A program made the translations under genes and the position numbers. Positions 5,663-13,381 of a stretch of 64,000 bases of DNA are shown piece after piece. The stretch is taken from contig JAENZL010000003.1 in the NCBI GenBank assembly GCA_016841265.1, forward strand, positions 62,001 through 126,000, read 5' to 3'. Below the pieces are notes generated by a model. That model searched no databases, was not told the origin of the DNA, and saw only the letters and a list, made by a program, of their open reading frames with translations. Each line of letters opens with the position of its first letter. Within the stretch, counting starts at the first letter, position 1. This stretch comes from Methanobacteriota archaeon (GTDB lineage: Archaea > Halobacteriota > Methanosarcinia > Methanosarcinales > Methanosarcinaceae).

Positions 5663-6928
5663 TTATTCTTCCTTTCTCACCGGGAGCGTCTGTCCTCCGT
5701 GGGGCATCAGGTGGATTTTTGCGTCCGGGTTCTGGGAAATGACTTCTTCAAGGGCTTCCCGGACACTTCCCATCGGGGTGAAGAAGGCATCCCTGGTATC
5801 TTCTTCCGGGAGTTTTGAGACCAGGTAAAGTTTGAACTTTTTTGCGGCTTTTGCCACAATTGCACTCTTGTGCCCCCCGAACTCGAAACAACGCTTGAAA
5901 CGCTCGACAGCCTCATCCGGGCTTTTACATTCCCTGTTCCAGCACTCGTATATCTGGTTCCCGATCCCTTCGGCACACTCGGCCACGAGGATGATGGAGC
6001 CGCCGTCTTTTACTGCCTGGGTGGCGTTGTCAAGAGATTTGTTGGCCTGGTAGAGGTTGATGTCCTTAGGGTAGCCTCCGCAGGAGACGATGACGGCGTC
6101 TGCGGGCTCGACCTGGACCTTGTACATGGTGTCCACAGCCTCAACCCCTTTGCGGTGGGCTTCGATAAAGTCCCCTGCAACGGCAGCAACGATTCCTTTC
6201 TTGCTGTCGAGTACCACGTTCAGGATGAAGTCGATTCCGCCAATTTTTACGGCTTCCTCCATATCCTGCCTGACAGGGCTGTCGACTCTTCCGGAAACCG
6301 CCTTTTCTTCCATCATTAGCTTGTGGTTCGTAAGCACGGAGACTTCCGAACTCACACCCGGTAGAACGGACTTGGCGCCACCGCTGTACCCCGCATAATA
6401 GTGGAACTCAATTCCTCCGGTCCCGATGACCACATCGGAATCTAGTACTTCTTCAAAGATCTCTATAGGTGTCCCACGACTCGTAACTCCGACACGCCTG
6501 CACCTGCCCGTATCGTGCTGGATGCAGCGGATTTTCTCGTAAATTTCGTCTCCTACCAGTTTCCGGGATTCCTCTTCGGTCTGCTGCCTGTGCAGGCCAA
6601 GGGCAAATATGATTGTGATGTTTTCGGCTTTTGCTCCTCCGAGATAAAGCTCTTCGAGGAGGGGAGGCAGCAGTTTTGCAGTGGGAGTCGGGCGGGTAAC
6701 ATCGCTTACAATGACCGCAACCTTTGATTCCGGGTTTACAATCTCGGAAAGGCGCCTGCTCTTTATGGGGTTTTCAAGCGCTTGTTTAATTAAAAAAGCT
6801 CCCTCTTCCCGTTTTTCAGGTTCCGAGGGCATTATGACGCTAGAGAGGTTCTTTTCCGGAACCTCCAGCTCAAGTTTCTCGCTGCCGAAAGCGAGTTTAA
6901 TCTTTTTTACATTTGTCTTCATGTTCAT
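5663..6928 (-). CDS. LarA-family nickel-pincer racemase-like protein, copy 1
   Basis: About 421 aa, lactate-racemase (LarA) family. LarA uses a nickel-pincer nucleotide cofactor tethered to a lysine. The three active-site residues are present with exact LarA spacing: the His in EFHYYAGY, the Lys ten residues later in GGAKSVLPG, and the His sixteen residues after that in LTNHK; the earlier GLHR histidine is present too. The longer ORF start at 7009 is rejected because a TATA-like box (6949-6958, minus sense) lies only about 25 bases before the ATG at 6928 (alternative ATG 6922). That predicts a leaderless mRNA. Substrate unknown; a 2-hydroxyacid is likely. No larB/C/E is visible here. Confidence 0.85.
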   Translation of the reverse strand: MNMKTNVKKIKLAFGSEKLELEVPEKNLSSVIMPSEPEKREEGAFLIKQALENPIKSRRLSEIVNPESKVAVIVSDVTRPTPTAKLLPPLLEELYLGGAKAENITIIFALGLHRQQTEEESRKLVGDEIYEKIRCIQHDTGRCRRVGVTSRGTPIEIFEEVLDSDVVIGTGGIEFHYYAGYSGGAKSVLPGVSSEVSVLTNHKLMMEEKAVSGRVDSPVRQDMEEAVKIGGIDFILNVVLDSKKGIVAAVAGDFIEAHRKGVEAVDTMYKVQVEPADAVIVSCGGYPKDINLYQANKSLDNATQAVKDGGSIILVAECAEGIGNQIYECWNRECKSPDEAVERFKRCFEFGGHKSAIVAKAAKKFKLYLVSKLPEEDTRDAFFTPMGSVREALEEVISQNPDAKIHLMPHGGQTLPVRKEE

Positions 6929-6948
6929 GTTCGGAAGGAATATCCTGA

Positions 6949-6958
6949 TAATATAAAA
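6949..6958 (-). promoter_or_regulatory. TATA box of LarA copy 1
   Basis: TTTTATATTA in the minus sense, centred 25 bases before the ATG at 6928, the normal archaeal distance to a transcription start. Predicts a leaderless or near-leaderless transcript. Confidence 0.5.
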
Positions 6959-6998
6959 TGATATAGGTAAACATACGCCGGAGATAAGCAATACATGT

Positions 6999-7089
6999 GA
7001 AGTAAACAATACTTATGCGGTAAACAGTACTTATGAAGTATACAATACTTTATGAAGTGTACAATACTTCTGAAGTAAATAATACCCAT
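6999..7089. repeat. Five tandem copies of an 18-19 bp unit
   Basis: Degenerate direct repeat with consensus GAAGTAAACAATACTTAT at 6999, 7017, 7035, 7054 and 7072, in the gap between the two larA paralogues. Each unit also has partial dyad symmetry (AAGTA...TACTT). Confidence 0.85.
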
Positions 7090-7121
7090 GATTCCTTTCG
7101 GACTTTAGAACCTTTCTGACC

Positions 7122-8396
7122 TCATGATTCCTTTCTGACCGGAAGCGTCCTCCCCCCGTCGGGCATTACATGAACCCTTGCCTCCGGATTTTCAATGAGG
7201 ATTATTTCCAGGGCTTCCTGCACGCTTTTTACAGGGGTAAAGAAAGTGTTCCTGCACTCTTTTTCGGAAAGTTTCGAGACCATATAGAGCTTGAACTGCT
7301 TTGCCGCCTTTCCGATTATTGCGCTCTTATGCCCTCCGAATTCAAAATTTTCCCTGAACCTTTCAACGGCCTCATCCGGGCTTTTGCACTCCCTGCTCCA
7401 GCATTCGTAAACCTTATTCCCCAGCCCTTCCGGACATTCGGCTGCAAGCACTATTGAGCCTCCCGTTTTTACTGCAGCTACGGCGTTTTCCAGGGCTTTG
7501 GTCGCCTGGTAGAGGTTTATGTCCTTGGGAAAGCCGCCGCAGGAGGCAATGACAGCGTCTGCAGGTTCAACTGGCACCTTGTACATGGCATCCACGTACT
7601 CTGCTCCTTTCCGGTGGGCTTTGATGAAGTCCCCTGAAACCGCCGTCACGATTCTTTTCTTGCTGTCGATTACCGCGTTCAGGATAAAGCTGAGTCCCGC
7701 TATTTTTGCGGCTTCTTCGATGTTCTGCCTTGCCGGGCTGTTAACCCTTCCGGAGAGAGGGTCGCCTTCAAAGAGCCGGCTGTAAAAACTGTGGAACGAA
7801 AGCACAGCCCTTTCTGAACTGACCCCGGGCAGGATGCACTTTCCTCCCCCGCCGTAGCCCGCATAGTAATGGAACTCAATGGTGCCGGTCCCGACAATCA
7901 GGTCAGAGTTCAGGACCTCTTCAAAAATTTCGACCGGGGTGCCAAAGCTGGTTTTCCCTATATTCCTGCAGCGCTCCCTGTCGTGCTGGATGCAGCGGAA
8001 GTTTTCGAAAATTTCATCCCCTATAAGCTTCCTGCACTCTTCTTCGGTCTGTTTCCGGTGCAGGCCCAGGGCAAAAACGATAGTGATATTCTCATCCCTA
8101 ACTCTTCCTAGACGGAGTTCTTCAAGGAGTGGGTGGAGAAGCTTCTCAGAAGGTGTGGGACGGGTGACATCGCTTACGATGATTGCGACCCGGGACTCCG
8201 GATTTACAAGTTCGGAAAGGCGCCTGCTTCCTACAGGGTCCCGAAGGGCTTTTTTGACTATGGAGCTTTCATCTTCCCTTGTTTCGGGTTCCGAGGGCAG
8301 GATGATCTCAGAGAGGTTCTTTTCAGGAATTTTGAGTTCAATTACTCCGTTCCCGAAAGGGAGATCTATTTTTCTCGTTTCAATGGTTGGCTTCAT
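7122..8396 (-). CDS. LarA-family nickel-pincer racemase-like protein, copy 2
   Basis: About 424 aa, a close paralogue of the neighbouring minus-strand LarA protein along the whole length. The cofactor and catalytic positions are kept with the same spacing (His in EFHYYAGY, Lys in GGGGKCILPG, His in LSFHS). It differs by a few extra residues around SRLFEGDPLSGRV after the third site. The upstream ORF extension to 8447 is rejected: a TATA-like AAATATAAAT (8416-8425, read on the minus strand as ATTTATATTT) is centred about 25 bases before the ATG at 8396, giving a leaderless transcript. The two copies thus appear to have separate promoters. Confidence 0.85.
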   Translation of the reverse strand: MKPTIETRKIDLPFGNGVIELKIPEKNLSEIILPSEPETREDESSIVKKALRDPVGSRRLSELVNPESRVAIIVSDVTRPTPSEKLLHPLLEELRLGRVRDENITIVFALGLHRKQTEEECRKLIGDEIFENFRCIQHDRERCRNIGKTSFGTPVEIFEEVLNSDLIVGTGTIEFHYYAGYGGGGKCILPGVSSERAVLSFHSFYSRLFEGDPLSGRVNSPARQNIEEAAKIAGLSFILNAVIDSKKRIVTAVSGDFIKAHRKGAEYVDAMYKVPVEPADAVIASCGGFPKDINLYQATKALENAVAAVKTGGSIVLAAECPEGLGNKVYECWSRECKSPDEAVERFRENFEFGGHKSAIIGKAAKQFKLYMVSKLSEKECRNTFFTPVKSVQEALEIILIENPEARVHVMPDGGRTLPVRKES

Positions 8397-8415
8397 GCCT
8401 GCAAAATATACCTGT

Positions 8416-8425
8416 AAATATAAAT
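8416..8425 (-). promoter_or_regulatory. TATA box of LarA copy 2
   Basis: ATTTATATTT in the minus sense, centred 24-25 bases before the ATG at 8396; the coding start and the predicted transcription start coincide. Confidence 0.5.
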
Positions 8426-8678
8426 CGCTATTGAAATTGTTAACCACCCTCTAAATATAAAGAATTAAATGGATTCAGTCTTCATTCCCCGGAGCAAAAT
8501 CTGCATATACACAGGCTCTTTCCCAGGTTCCTTAAGTTCCAAACTATGGTTAGATACTGGTCCTTCAAAGGAATTTTACCTTTACTGAAAGTTAATGCCT
8601 TAAGGTCCCTCTTCCTGAAGAAAATATAATACTTATTAAAATTTAGAGAGATCTATATTAAGTACATACATCAAATAT

Positions 8679-11004: not shown

Positions 11005-11343
11005 ATGAAAATACTTGACGTCAGGTCAGCACCGGAAAAACCTAATCCTCACAATGTTAGCGTGCGCAAACTCTACGATACTGAGCATGCGCAGGTAATG
11101 CATATTGAACTGAAGCCCGGGGAGAAAATGAAGAAACACATCACTCCTGTAGATGTTTTCTTCTATGTTCTGGAAGGCAAAGGTACGGTAGAGGTGGGAG
11201 ATGAAAAAGCAGATGTAAGCAGGGACATGCTAATCGAAAGCCCTGCAAAAATCCCGCATCGTCTCCTGAACGAAGGTGATTCCGTATTCAGGGTGCTTGT
11301 AGTAAAAGTACCCCGACAGACCAACGAAACAAAACTTTTGTGA
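11005..11343 (+). CDS. Single-domain cupin protein
   Basis: 112-aa cupin. The conserved barrel is visible: HIELKPGEKMKKHITP (motif 1 with metal-ligand-type histidine), FFYVLEGKGTVEVGDE (central strand pair) and the later IPHRLLNEGDS histidine of motif 2. Strong G-rich ribosome-binding site (GGGGGGT) before the ATG. Small cupins of this type bind metal or small ligands; the specific role is unknown. It lies 137 bases upstream of the CooS-like gene on the same strand, separated by a 13-bp repeat array and a TATA box, so probably not one operon. Confidence 0.85.
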   Translation: MKILDVRSAPEKPNPHNVSVRKLYDTEHAQVMHIELKPGEKMKKHITPVDVFFYVLEGKGTVEVGDEKADVSRDMLIESPAKIPHRLLNEGDSVFRVLVVKVPRQTNETKLL

Positions 11344-11410
11344 AATAACTCTGTGAAATAACTCTGTGAAATAACTCTGTGAAATAACTCTGTGAAATAA
11401 CTCTGTGAAA
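11341..11410. repeat. 13-bp tandem repeat, five copies plus partial
   Basis: TGAAATAACTCTG repeated perfectly at 11341, 11354, 11367, 11380 and 11393, then a partial copy. The first unit supplies the TGA stop of the cupin gene. Perfect identity suggests recent slippage expansion. Confidence 0.95.
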
Positions 11411-11479: not shown

Positions 11480-13381
11480 ATGGATAAGGAGAGAATTTCT
11501 TATCATGAGTCCGTACAGAAAATGTACGAAAAAATTAAACAGGACAACATGACCAATGTCTGGGACCGCTACGAAGCCCAGGGCCTGGGGGGAGACCCGG
11601 ATAAGCGGTGTATGTTCTGTATGGGTGGAGTTCGCTGTGATTTCTGTTCCAACGGGCCCTGCCGGGCAGATGCCGCCAAAGACAAAAGAGGGGTCTGCGG
11701 GATTACCGCCGATGGCATGGCAATGCGGATGATGTTGCTAAGAAACGTGATGGGGGCGTCCACCTACCAGTATCACACGGACCAGACCATCCGGACGCTC
11801 AGGGAAACCGCAAAGGGCAAAACCCCTTACTCTATAAAAGAACCGGAGAAACTGAGGACATTTGCGGGCAGGCTGGGGATCGAAACCCTGGGAAGCGATT
11901 CGGAAATTGCCCTTAAGCTCTGCGAATTTGTGGAGAAGGAATTTAACAGGCCTGCATACGAGCCCAGCCTGATAGTAGAGTTTCTTGCTCCTCCCGAAAG
12001 GAAGAAAAGATGGGAAGAACTGGGAATATTCCCGGGCGGGATCTACGGGGAAATGATGCTCTCCACAGGTTCCTGCCTGACAAACGTTGACGGGTACTAC
12101 GTAAGTCTGGCCCTGAAAGCCATGCGTCTGGGCGTTGCAATGGCGTACCAGAGCCAGATCGTAAACGAGTACTGTCAGGATATCCTCTTCGGGATCCCAA
12201 AACCCCACACAATGCGGGTCGACCTCGGAGTGCTGGACCCTGAGTATGTAAACGTACTTCCGAACGGCCACGAACCTTTCCTTGGTTTTGCCATGGTCCA
12301 GCTTGCCCGGAAACCGGAGTGGCAGGACAGGGCAAAAGCCGCAGGGGCAAAGGGGCTGAGGGTTATTGCCAGCATAGAATCCGGCCAGGAAATGATCCAG
12401 AGGTGGGAGGAAGATGACGTTTTCTACGGCTTCACGGGTAACTGGATTTCCCAGGAAGCCGTGTTTGCAAGCGGGAGTGTGGACCTTTTTGCCGCAGACA
12501 TGAACTGTTCCCTGCCCGTTGCCCCCCTCTACGCCGAAAAATACGGGTTCAAACTCATCCCTGTAAGCGAACTCGTTGCCTTCGAAGGCATCACTGATCG
12601 CCTGAACTATAACCCTGTAGAGGCTGGAAGGCAGGCATCTAAGCTCCTGGAAATGGCGATCGAAAACTTCAAGGAACGGAAAAAATCCCCCGGCGGGGTA
12701 AAACAGCTCCCTATGAAAGAAGCCATGGTCGGTTTTTCAACCGAGAGCATCCTGGAGACCCTGGGAGGCAGTCTTGACCCTCTTCTTGACGCCATAAAAA
12801 GCGGCCAGATTAAAGGAGTCGTGGGCATGGTCTCCTGCGCGACCCTGAGGGACTACGGGCAGGACACGCACAGTGTTGCCGTGGTAAGAGAACTGATCAA
12901 GCGAAACATCCTGGTCCTCTCCCTGGGCTGTGGGAACGGAGCCATGCAGGTCGCAGGCCTCTGCTCCCCCGAAGCCCGGGAATTTGCCGGGGACAGCCTG
13001 AAAGCGGTCTGTGAAGCCCTGGGTGTTCCGCCAGTGCTCAGTTACGGGACATGCACCGACACTGGCAGGCTTGCCGACCTTCTGGGTGCCATCTCCGCAG
13101 TCCTGGGAGCTCCTGTCCCGGACCTTCCGGTTGCGGCCGCAGCCCCGGAATACATGGAACAAAAAGCCACCATTGACGCCATCTTTGCCCTGGCGCTCGG
13201 GCTTTACACCTACGTAAACCCCGTCCCGACCGTCACCGGAGGCCCGGACCTGGTCAAACTCCTGACCGAAGACTGCCGGGATGTGACAGGCGGGGTCCTT
13301 AGAGTGGAAAATGATGCCGTAAAGGCAGTCGACGGGATAGAACAGCACATCATGGAAAAGAGACAGAAACTCGGGATCTGA
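11480..13381 (+). CDS. Divergent CooS-family (Ni-CODH-like) protein
   Basis: 633 aa from the ATG at 11480, chosen because GGGGAG sits 8-10 bases upstream; an in-frame GTG at 11471 lies inside that site. Homologous throughout to anaerobic CO dehydrogenase catalytic subunit (CooS), which oxidises CO at a Ni-Fe C-cluster. B-cluster cysteines are C53, C56, C61, C73. The D-cluster motif is CX2C (C44, C47), the form linked to a [2Fe-2S] D-cluster. Of the C-cluster ligands (numbering of C. hydrogenoformans CODH-II from memory: H261, C295, C333, C446, C476, C526) I find H263, C343, C453, C484 and C525, but the C295 position is E300. The Lys of the active site is kept (K562). The histidine chain near residues 97-106 is mostly lost. 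No cooF, cooC or ACS genes are adjacent. CO oxidation is therefore doubtful. Confidence 0.85.
   Translation: MDKERISYHESVQKMYEKIKQDNMTNVWDRYEAQGLGGDPDKRCMFCMGGVRCDFCSNGPCRADAAKDKRGVCGITADGMAMRMMLLRNVMGASTYQYHTDQTIRTLRETAKGKTPYSIKEPEKLRTFAGRLGIETLGSDSEIALKLCEFVEKEFNRPAYEPSLIVEFLAPPERKKRWEELGIFPGGIYGEMMLSTGSCLTNVDGYYVSLALKAMRLGVAMAYQSQIVNEYCQDILFGIPKPHTMRVDLGVLDPEYVNVLPNGHEPFLGFAMVQLARKPEWQDRAKAAGAKGLRVIASIESGQEMIQRWEEDDVFYGFTGNWISQEAVFASGSVDLFAADMNCSLPVAPLYAEKYGFKLIPVSELVAFEGITDRLNYNPVEAGRQASKLLEMAIENFKERKKSPGGVKQLPMKEAMVGFSTESILETLGGSLDPLLDAIKSGQIKGVVGMVSCATLRDYGQDTHSVAVVRELIKRNILVLSLGCGNGAMQVAGLCSPEAREFAGDSLKAVCEALGVPPVLSYGTCTDTGRLADLLGAISAVLGAPVPDLPVAAAAPEYMEQKATIDAIFALALGLYTYVNPVPTVTGGPDLVKLLTEDCRDVTGGVLRVENDAVKAVDGIEQHIMEKRQKLGI

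What the first reader, a model, noticed from the sequence alone, without database searches (positions are those of the whole stretch)
11480..13381. CooS homologue with a C-cluster ligand replaced by glutamate
Seen: the protein aligns with CooS and keeps H263, C343, C453, C484, C525 and K562, but the position of the canonical Cys295 is E300 (GAA at 12377-12379, context VIASIESGQE against VVGICCTGNE of CODH-II from memory). The histidine chain near residues 97-106 is also mostly lost (one H kept). Known: divergent CODH clades exist, including C. hydrogenoformans CODH-V, reported to carry an altered Fe-S-O cluster and no CO oxidation. Inference: this methanogen protein belongs to such a clade and does some other redox chemistry. 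No cooF or Ni-insertion gene lies next to it.
Basis: partly seen in the sequence, partly recalled or inferred. Interest (0 to 1): 0.78.

Follow-up and report, generated by a model that had tools for sequence, protein, structure and literature searches.

The report
CO-dehydrogenase lookalike with hybrid iron cluster
This methanogen gene looks like a carbon-monoxide-burning enzyme but carries the amino acids that build a different, nickel-free iron-sulfur-oxygen cluster; it belongs to a known family (CooS-V), and its neighbouring cupin gene, from a family that also sits beside hybrid cluster protein genes, hints that it may help deal with reactive nitrogen compounds.

Summary
The gene at 11480-13381 encodes a 633-aa CooS homologue with Glu300 (GAA, 12377-12379) where CO dehydrogenases have Cys295; the other C-cluster ligands are kept. 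The closest solved structure is CooS-V of C. hydrogenoformans (7B7Q, 49-50% identity; model TM-score 0.96), all Glu-bearing sequences form one clade, and every sequence feature of published structural group D-1 is met. This is a member of a known family, already reported from Methanosarcina. What I add is genomic context. A cupin gene lies 136 nt upstream, conserved in four genomes. In the same family of archaea, 59 of 104 genes of this cupin family lie 26-172 nt downstream of an HCP gene, and none was found near 36 other CooS copies. In Desulfovibrio desulfuricans a cupin-hcp pair is among the genes most induced by nitric oxide. I therefore think the protein is a nickel-free hybrid-cluster reductase in the HCP/cupin reactive-nitrogen response. 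Its substrate is unproven, and one genetic study of M. acetivorans points to CO instead.

The parts
11480..13381 (+). CooS-V-type (structural group D-1) CooS homologue, 633 aa
11466..11473 (+). probable ribosome-binding site (GGGGAGTG) for the ATG at 11480
   Evidence: read from sequence; similar motif before the start in the three other cupin-cooS loci
12377..12379 (+). Glu300 (GAA): replaces C-cluster Cys295; equals Glu295 of CooS-V
12269..12271 (+). His264: cluster histidine (His259 of CooS-V)
12506..12508 (+). Cys343 (Cys338 of CooS-V)
12836..12838 (+). Cys453 (Cys449 of CooS-V)
12929..12931 (+). Cys484 (Cys480 of CooS-V)
13052..13054 (+). Cys525 (Cys521 of CooS-V, the persulfide cysteine)
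   Evidence: role from PMC9311411
13157..13159 (+). Glu560: extra hybrid-cluster Glu (Glu556 of CooS-V; Glu494 of D. vulgaris HCP)
13163..13165 (+). Lys562 (conserved catalytic lysine)
11765..11767 (+). Tyr96 at the acid-base histidine position
11609..11620 (+). Cys44-X2-Cys47: type III D-cluster (bridging [2Fe-2S] in CooS-V)
   Evidence: type from PMC6344411 and PMC9311411
11636..11698 (+). Cys53, Cys56, Cys61, Cys73: B-cluster [4Fe-4S] ligands
11005..11343 (+). Cupin_2 protein, 112 aa, 136 nt upstream on the same strand; probable partner gene
11339..11410 (.). 13-bp tandem repeat (5.5 copies, TGTGAAATAACTC) between cupin and cooS; absent from the three other genomes with the pair

Best explanation
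The gene encodes a homodimeric CooS-V-type protein that has lost the Ni,Fe C-cluster and instead builds a Ni-free [4Fe-3S-nO] hybrid cluster held by His264, Glu300, Cys343, Cys453, Cys484, Cys525 and Glu560. Electrons enter through a bridging [2Fe-2S] D-cluster and [4Fe-4S] B-clusters. It does not oxidise CO. Most likely it acts as a low-potential reductase in the reactive-nitrogen (NO/hydroxylamine) response, together with the small cupin protein encoded just upstream, in parallel with the HCP-cupin pairs of related archaea. Shown here: sequence, ligand set, clade, predicted fold and gene linkage. Inferred from the characterised homologue: cluster type, dimer and absence of CODH activity. Inferred from linkage only: the reactive-nitrogen role and the cupin as a functional partner.
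For: Closest solved sequence is CooS-V (E 7.6e-199; next CODH 2.3e-116). AlphaFold model (pLDDT 94) matches 7B9A/7B7Q at TM 0.96, 49% identity. All ligands of the CooS-V hybrid cluster align, including Glu556 = Glu560. One clade of all 44 Glu rows, SH-aLRT 100. CooS-V has no CO/CO2 activity and slow NH2OH reduction (PMC9311411). Linkage: the cupin family lies 26-172 nt downstream of HCP in 59 of 104 copies in the 112 genomes of this taxonomic family, and 80-146 nt upstream of D-1 cooS in 4. Of 36 other CooS copies, none has a cupin copy nearer than 96 kb on the same contig (many draft contigs are short, so this control is partial). Outside the family 5 of 8 genomes holding both have the cupin within 2.6 kb of D-1 cooS, one at 16 nt. 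Cupins are found at +-1 of D-1 cooS in 13 of 233 neighbours against 1 of 586 at +-3 to 5. Cupin Ddes_1828 and hcp Ddes_1829 form one of the two clusters most induced by NO in D. desulfuricans (PMC5701242).
Against: Hydroxylamine turnover of CooS-V is very slow and NO reduction was not detected (PMC9311411), so the true substrate may differ. A review states that both monofunctional CooS proteins of M. acetivorans help remove CO at high pressure (PMC4652020, citing Rother 2007), and Inoue et al. cite that work as possible D-1 involvement in CO oxidation (PMC6344411). The cupin lies next to cooS in only a minority of D-1 loci; in Methanosarcina-type genomes the other cupin copy sits beside siroheme NIR_SIR proteins instead. 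HCP and D-1 cooS show no co-occurrence across the family (p = 1). I did not show that the Desulfovibrio cupin belongs to the same cupin subfamily.
Confidence: 0.6

Rival explanations
1. It still acts on CO: with its native maturation it forms a Ni-containing or otherwise CO-reactive cluster and helps remove CO at high pressure.
For: M. acetivorans CooS proteins were reported to help remove CO (PMC4652020 and PMC6344411, citing Rother 2007); it co-occurs with other CODH genes in the same genome.
Against: Cys295 is replaced by Glu in the whole clade; CooS-V has no Ni and no CO activity, and C295E of CODH-II loses Ni and CO oxidation (PMC9311411); A. fulgidus cooS, assigned to clade D, does not respond to CO (PMC4543118); no cooF or Ni-insertion gene nearby.
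Confidence: 0.1
2. It is a redox sensor or regulator rather than a turnover enzyme: the hybrid cluster opens and closes with redox state and signals to partners.
For: Redox-driven cluster rearrangement and channel gating in CooS-V (PMC9311411); the eLife 2026 survey suggests redox-sensing or regulatory roles for clade D (PMC13056359); Rrf2 or TrmB regulators sit beside some D-1 genes.
Against: Pfam finds no DNA-binding or signalling domain; the full ligand and electron-relay set is conserved as in an enzyme; ferredoxin-type genes next to several D-1 genes suggest electron delivery.
Confidence: 0.15
3. It reduces a sulfur oxyanion or another small molecule, working with siroheme sulfite/nitrite reductase-like proteins.
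For: A NIR_SIR protein follows D-1 cooS in G205 (L234), and copies of the same cupin family accompany NIR_SIR proteins in Methanosarcina-type genomes.
Against: Only one D-1 locus was seen with NIR_SIR; the NIR_SIR family also includes nitrite reductases, so this does not separate S from N chemistry.
Confidence: 0.12

Closest known systems
CooS-V (CODH-V) of Carboxydothermus hydrogenoformans, PDB 7B7Q
   Same: All hybrid-cluster ligands, type III D-cluster, Tyr at the acid-base position, fold (TM 0.96)
   Different: 49-50% identity; archaeal host; an upstream cupin gene conserved in four genomes (the CooS-V locus itself was not examined for one)
Structural group D-1 Ni-CODHs (Inoue et al. 2019, PMC6344411)
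   Same: Meets every sequence feature listed for the group; the paper already discusses M. acetivorans D-1 proteins
   Different: Inoue reports COG1063 and HypA/B neighbours; here the neighbour is a cupin
Hybrid cluster protein (HCP, TIGR01703)
   Same: Same set of cluster ligands according to PMC6344411 and, in this archaeal family, the same cupin family as gene neighbour
   Different: By sequence a CooS; 37.7 bits to TIGR01703 against a 360.8 cut-off; CODH-type D-cluster; the genome has two separate real HCPs
Canonical CooS CODH (e.g. CODH-II, CODH-IV)
   Same: Fold and most ligands
   Different: Cys295 to Glu, acid-base His to Tyr, Glu560 gained; 32-35% identity

Membership tests
CooS-V subclade / structural group D-1 | First C-cluster Cys replaced by Glu | tested here: met
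   E300 on the Cys295 column
CooS-V subclade / structural group D-1 | Remaining C-cluster ligands (His, four Cys) kept | tested here: met
   H264, C343, C453, C484, C525
CooS-V subclade / structural group D-1 | Acid-base His replaced by Tyr; Lys kept | tested here: met
   Y96, K562
CooS-V subclade / structural group D-1 | Glu two residues before the Lys, as in HCP | tested here: met
   E560
CooS-V subclade / structural group D-1 | Type III D-cluster (Cys-X2-Cys, Gly41 to Cys) | tested here: met
   C44 and C47
CooS-V subclade / structural group D-1 | Monophyly with CooS-V, apart from Cys295-bearing CODHs | tested here: met
   SH-aLRT 100; no known D-2 to D-4 reference was included
CooS-V subclade / structural group D-1 | Ni-free Fe/S/O hybrid cluster, no CO oxidation | not testable with these tools
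   shown for CooS-V only (PMC9311411)
Ni,Fe-CODH | Complete Cys5-His C-cluster ligand set | tested here: not met
   Cys295 is Glu
Ni,Fe-CODH | CO oxidation activity | not testable with these tools
   needs an assay
Hybrid cluster protein (TIGR01703) | Score above the curated family cut-off | tested here: not met
   37.7 bits against 360.8
Hybrid cluster protein (TIGR01703) | Hybrid-cluster ligand set | tested here: inconclusive
   alignment with the genome's own HCP matches the His, four Cys, Glu560 and Lys columns, but the Glu300 column is gapped in that HCP, so identity there rests on PMC6344411

The most novel reading that the evidence does not exclude
A small cupin protein is a shared, so far unnamed partner of two independently evolved hybrid-cluster proteins, HCP and CooS-V (and perhaps of siroheme NIR_SIR proteins), defining a reactive-nitrogen module in archaea and some bacteria in which CooS-V can stand beside or in for HCP.
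Probability: 0.35. Interest if true: 0.6.

Novelty: new member of a known kind. Interest (0 to 1): 0.4.

Why it matters
Proteins of this type match the NCBI family model named anaerobic CO dehydrogenase, and 574 relatives were confirmed in one capped scan, although the ligand set argues against that activity. What CooS-V-type proteins do in the cell is unknown. The cupin family that neighbours both HCP and CooS-V genes gives a concrete, testable lead in genetically tractable Methanosarcina hosts.

Tried and rejected
Co-occurrence of HCP and D-1 cooS across 112 family genomes: no association in either direction (p = 1). One-for-one replacement of HCP by CooS-V is therefore not supported, although some genomes have only CooS-V. 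Sequencing error or chance for Glu300: rejected by conservation. Membership in HCP proper: rejected by score. A literature search for CooS-V with nitrosative stress found no paper; HCP with cupin found three, of which one bears on the question and one only names a cupin in an hcp neighbourhood figure. Atomic distances in the model could not be measured because coordinates were not among the files.

Full report
OBSERVATION. The window is contig C29:62001-126000 of a 3.65 Mb archaeal genome; the nearest named relatives in a capped scan are Methanosarcina. The ORF at 11480-13381 encodes 633 aa and scores 742 bits to the CO dehydrogenase model TIGR01702. Residue 300 is Glu, codon GAA at 12377-12379. 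Against CooS-V of C. hydrogenoformans (PDB 7B7Q) the correspondence is E300 = E295, H264 = H259, C343 = C338, C453 = C449, C484 = C480, C525 = C521, E560 = E556, K562 = K558. In four other CooS sequences the E300 column is Cys.

CONSERVATION. Of 80 homologous loci extracted from relatives (some are repeat fetches of one gene), 79 have Glu and one has Asp at this place; E560, H264 and the four Cys are invariant. The Asp case (L066, genome G137, 43-44% identical) also has Gly at position 47. It branches beside the Glu clade with SH-aLRT 88. Glu560 is also present in three outer rows that keep Cys at 300 (L227, L228, L231), so it seems older than the Cys-to-Glu change. The order of the D-cluster change rests on one long-branched sequence and is unsure.

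CLADE AND FOLD. In a 67-row maximum-likelihood tree all 44 Glu rows, with the window protein and CooS-V among them, form one side of a branch with SH-aLRT 100; Cys-bearing CooS rows are outside (quick search, midpoint root, no known D-2 to D-4 reference included). An AlphaFold model from 44 sequences, all taken from the window and fetched loci, has mean pLDDT 94. Its best PDB matches are the CooS-V entries 7B9A and 7B7Q (TM 0.96, rmsd 1.6 A, 49% identity); canonical CODHs follow at 0.92-0.95.

WHAT IS KNOWN. CooS-V was shown to hold a [4Fe-3S-nO] hybrid cluster without Ni, to lack CO oxidation and CO2 reduction, and to reduce hydroxylamine slowly; Cys295 to Glu is described as a shared derived trait of its subclade (PMC9311411). 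Structural group D-1 of Inoue et al. has Glu at the first Cys, Tyr at the acid-base His, Lys kept, type III D-cluster and the HCP-like Glu; M. acetivorans D-1 proteins are discussed there (PMC6344411). The window protein meets all of these. It is thus a new member of a known kind.

CONTEXT. No cooF or Ni-insertion gene is adjacent. Upstream on the same strand lies a 112-aa Cupin_2 protein (11005-11343), 136 nt before the ATG; downstream on the other strand is a metallo-beta-lactamase-fold gene. The cupin-cooS pair is kept in genomes G000, G006, G007 and G005. An ATATA block upstream of the cupin is conserved in all four and I see no such block in the gap between the genes, which is compatible with, but does not prove, one transcript. 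Other Methanosarcina-type genomes with D-1 cooS lack the adjacent cupin. G008, of the same genus as the window genome, lacks both the D-1 cooS and the cooS-linked cupin copy.

CUPIN-HCP LINK. A search of the 112 family genomes gives 104 cupin hits on my list. I compared their coordinates with HCP hits and D-1 cooS hits: 59 lie 26-172 nt downstream of an HCP gene on the same strand, in 57 genomes, and 4 lie upstream of D-1 cooS. For 36 other CooS copies the nearest cupin on a shared contig is 96 kb away (partial control, since many contigs are short). Outside the family 5 of 8 genomes that hold both genes have the cupin within 2.6 kb of D-1 cooS; in G217 it follows cooS after 16 nt. In wider taxa cupins, some of other subfamilies, occur as first neighbour of D-1 cooS in 13 of 233 positions against 1 of 586 at the third to fifth. 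These counts are not corrected for shared ancestry: the 59 HCP pairs come from one archaeal family, and the 13 cupin neighbours come from perhaps five or six lineages. Ferredoxin-type genes (16 loci) and Rrf2 regulators (7 loci) also recur beside D-1 cooS.

FUNCTION. In D. desulfuricans a cupin-hcp pair, Ddes_1828-1829, is one of the two clusters most strongly induced by NO (PMC5701242); I did not compare that cupin's sequence with this one. A 2023 study of a methanogen HCP states that hcp genes of classes I and III are often isolated without synteny (PMC10210160), and the word cupin does not occur in the 2026 CODH survey (PMC13056359). I found no paper linking CooS-V with cupin or nitrosative stress, within an open-access library only. 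The most economical reading is that CooS-V in these archaea works in the same response as HCP. Against this stand the slow NH2OH kinetics of CooS-V, the undetected NO reduction, the report on CO removal in M. acetivorans, the siroheme NIR_SIR context of the other cupin copy in Methanosarcina-type genomes, and the lack of HCP/CooS-V co-occurrence.

VERDICT. Observation confirmed; interpretation supported; family membership tested and met on sequence and predicted fold; biochemical features not testable here. Interest is moderate because the protein type is known, raised somewhat by the cupin lead.

Noticed in passing
L066 (G137:C3:80912-82777): Sister to the Glu clade with Asp at the Cys295 site, Gly at position 47 and Glu at 560: a possible intermediate between CODH and CooS-V; the group table I read (PMC6344411) lists no Asp at this site in clade D.
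   Followed up: partly
window 5663-8447: Two adjacent paralogues with lactate racemase LarA N- and C-terminal domains (a family whose known members use a nickel cofactor) on the minus strand.
   Followed up: no
window 11339-11410: Perfect 13-bp tandem repeat (5.5 copies, TGTGAAATAACTC) starting at the cupin stop; absent from the three other genomes with the cupin-cooS pair.
   Followed up: partly
L058 (G028:C1:1841650-1843551): D-1 cooS with an in-frame TAG at codon 86 where the window has Leu: pseudogene, error or pyrrolysine readthrough.
   Followed up: no
L234 (G205:C4:45000-58000): D-1 cooS followed on the same strand by a NIR_SIR siroheme-type protein and, further on, a cupin of a different subfamily.
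   Followed up: partly
L177, L179, L180: In the window's genus and in Methanosarcina-type genomes the general copy of the cupin clusters with NIR_SIR-type proteins, a CGGC-domain protein and a dicluster ferredoxin of the type seen beside D-1 cooS elsewhere.
   Followed up: partly
L225, L226 (G080, G094): Long-branched CooS copies with Asp at the second C-cluster cysteine, resembling published clade B.
   Followed up: no
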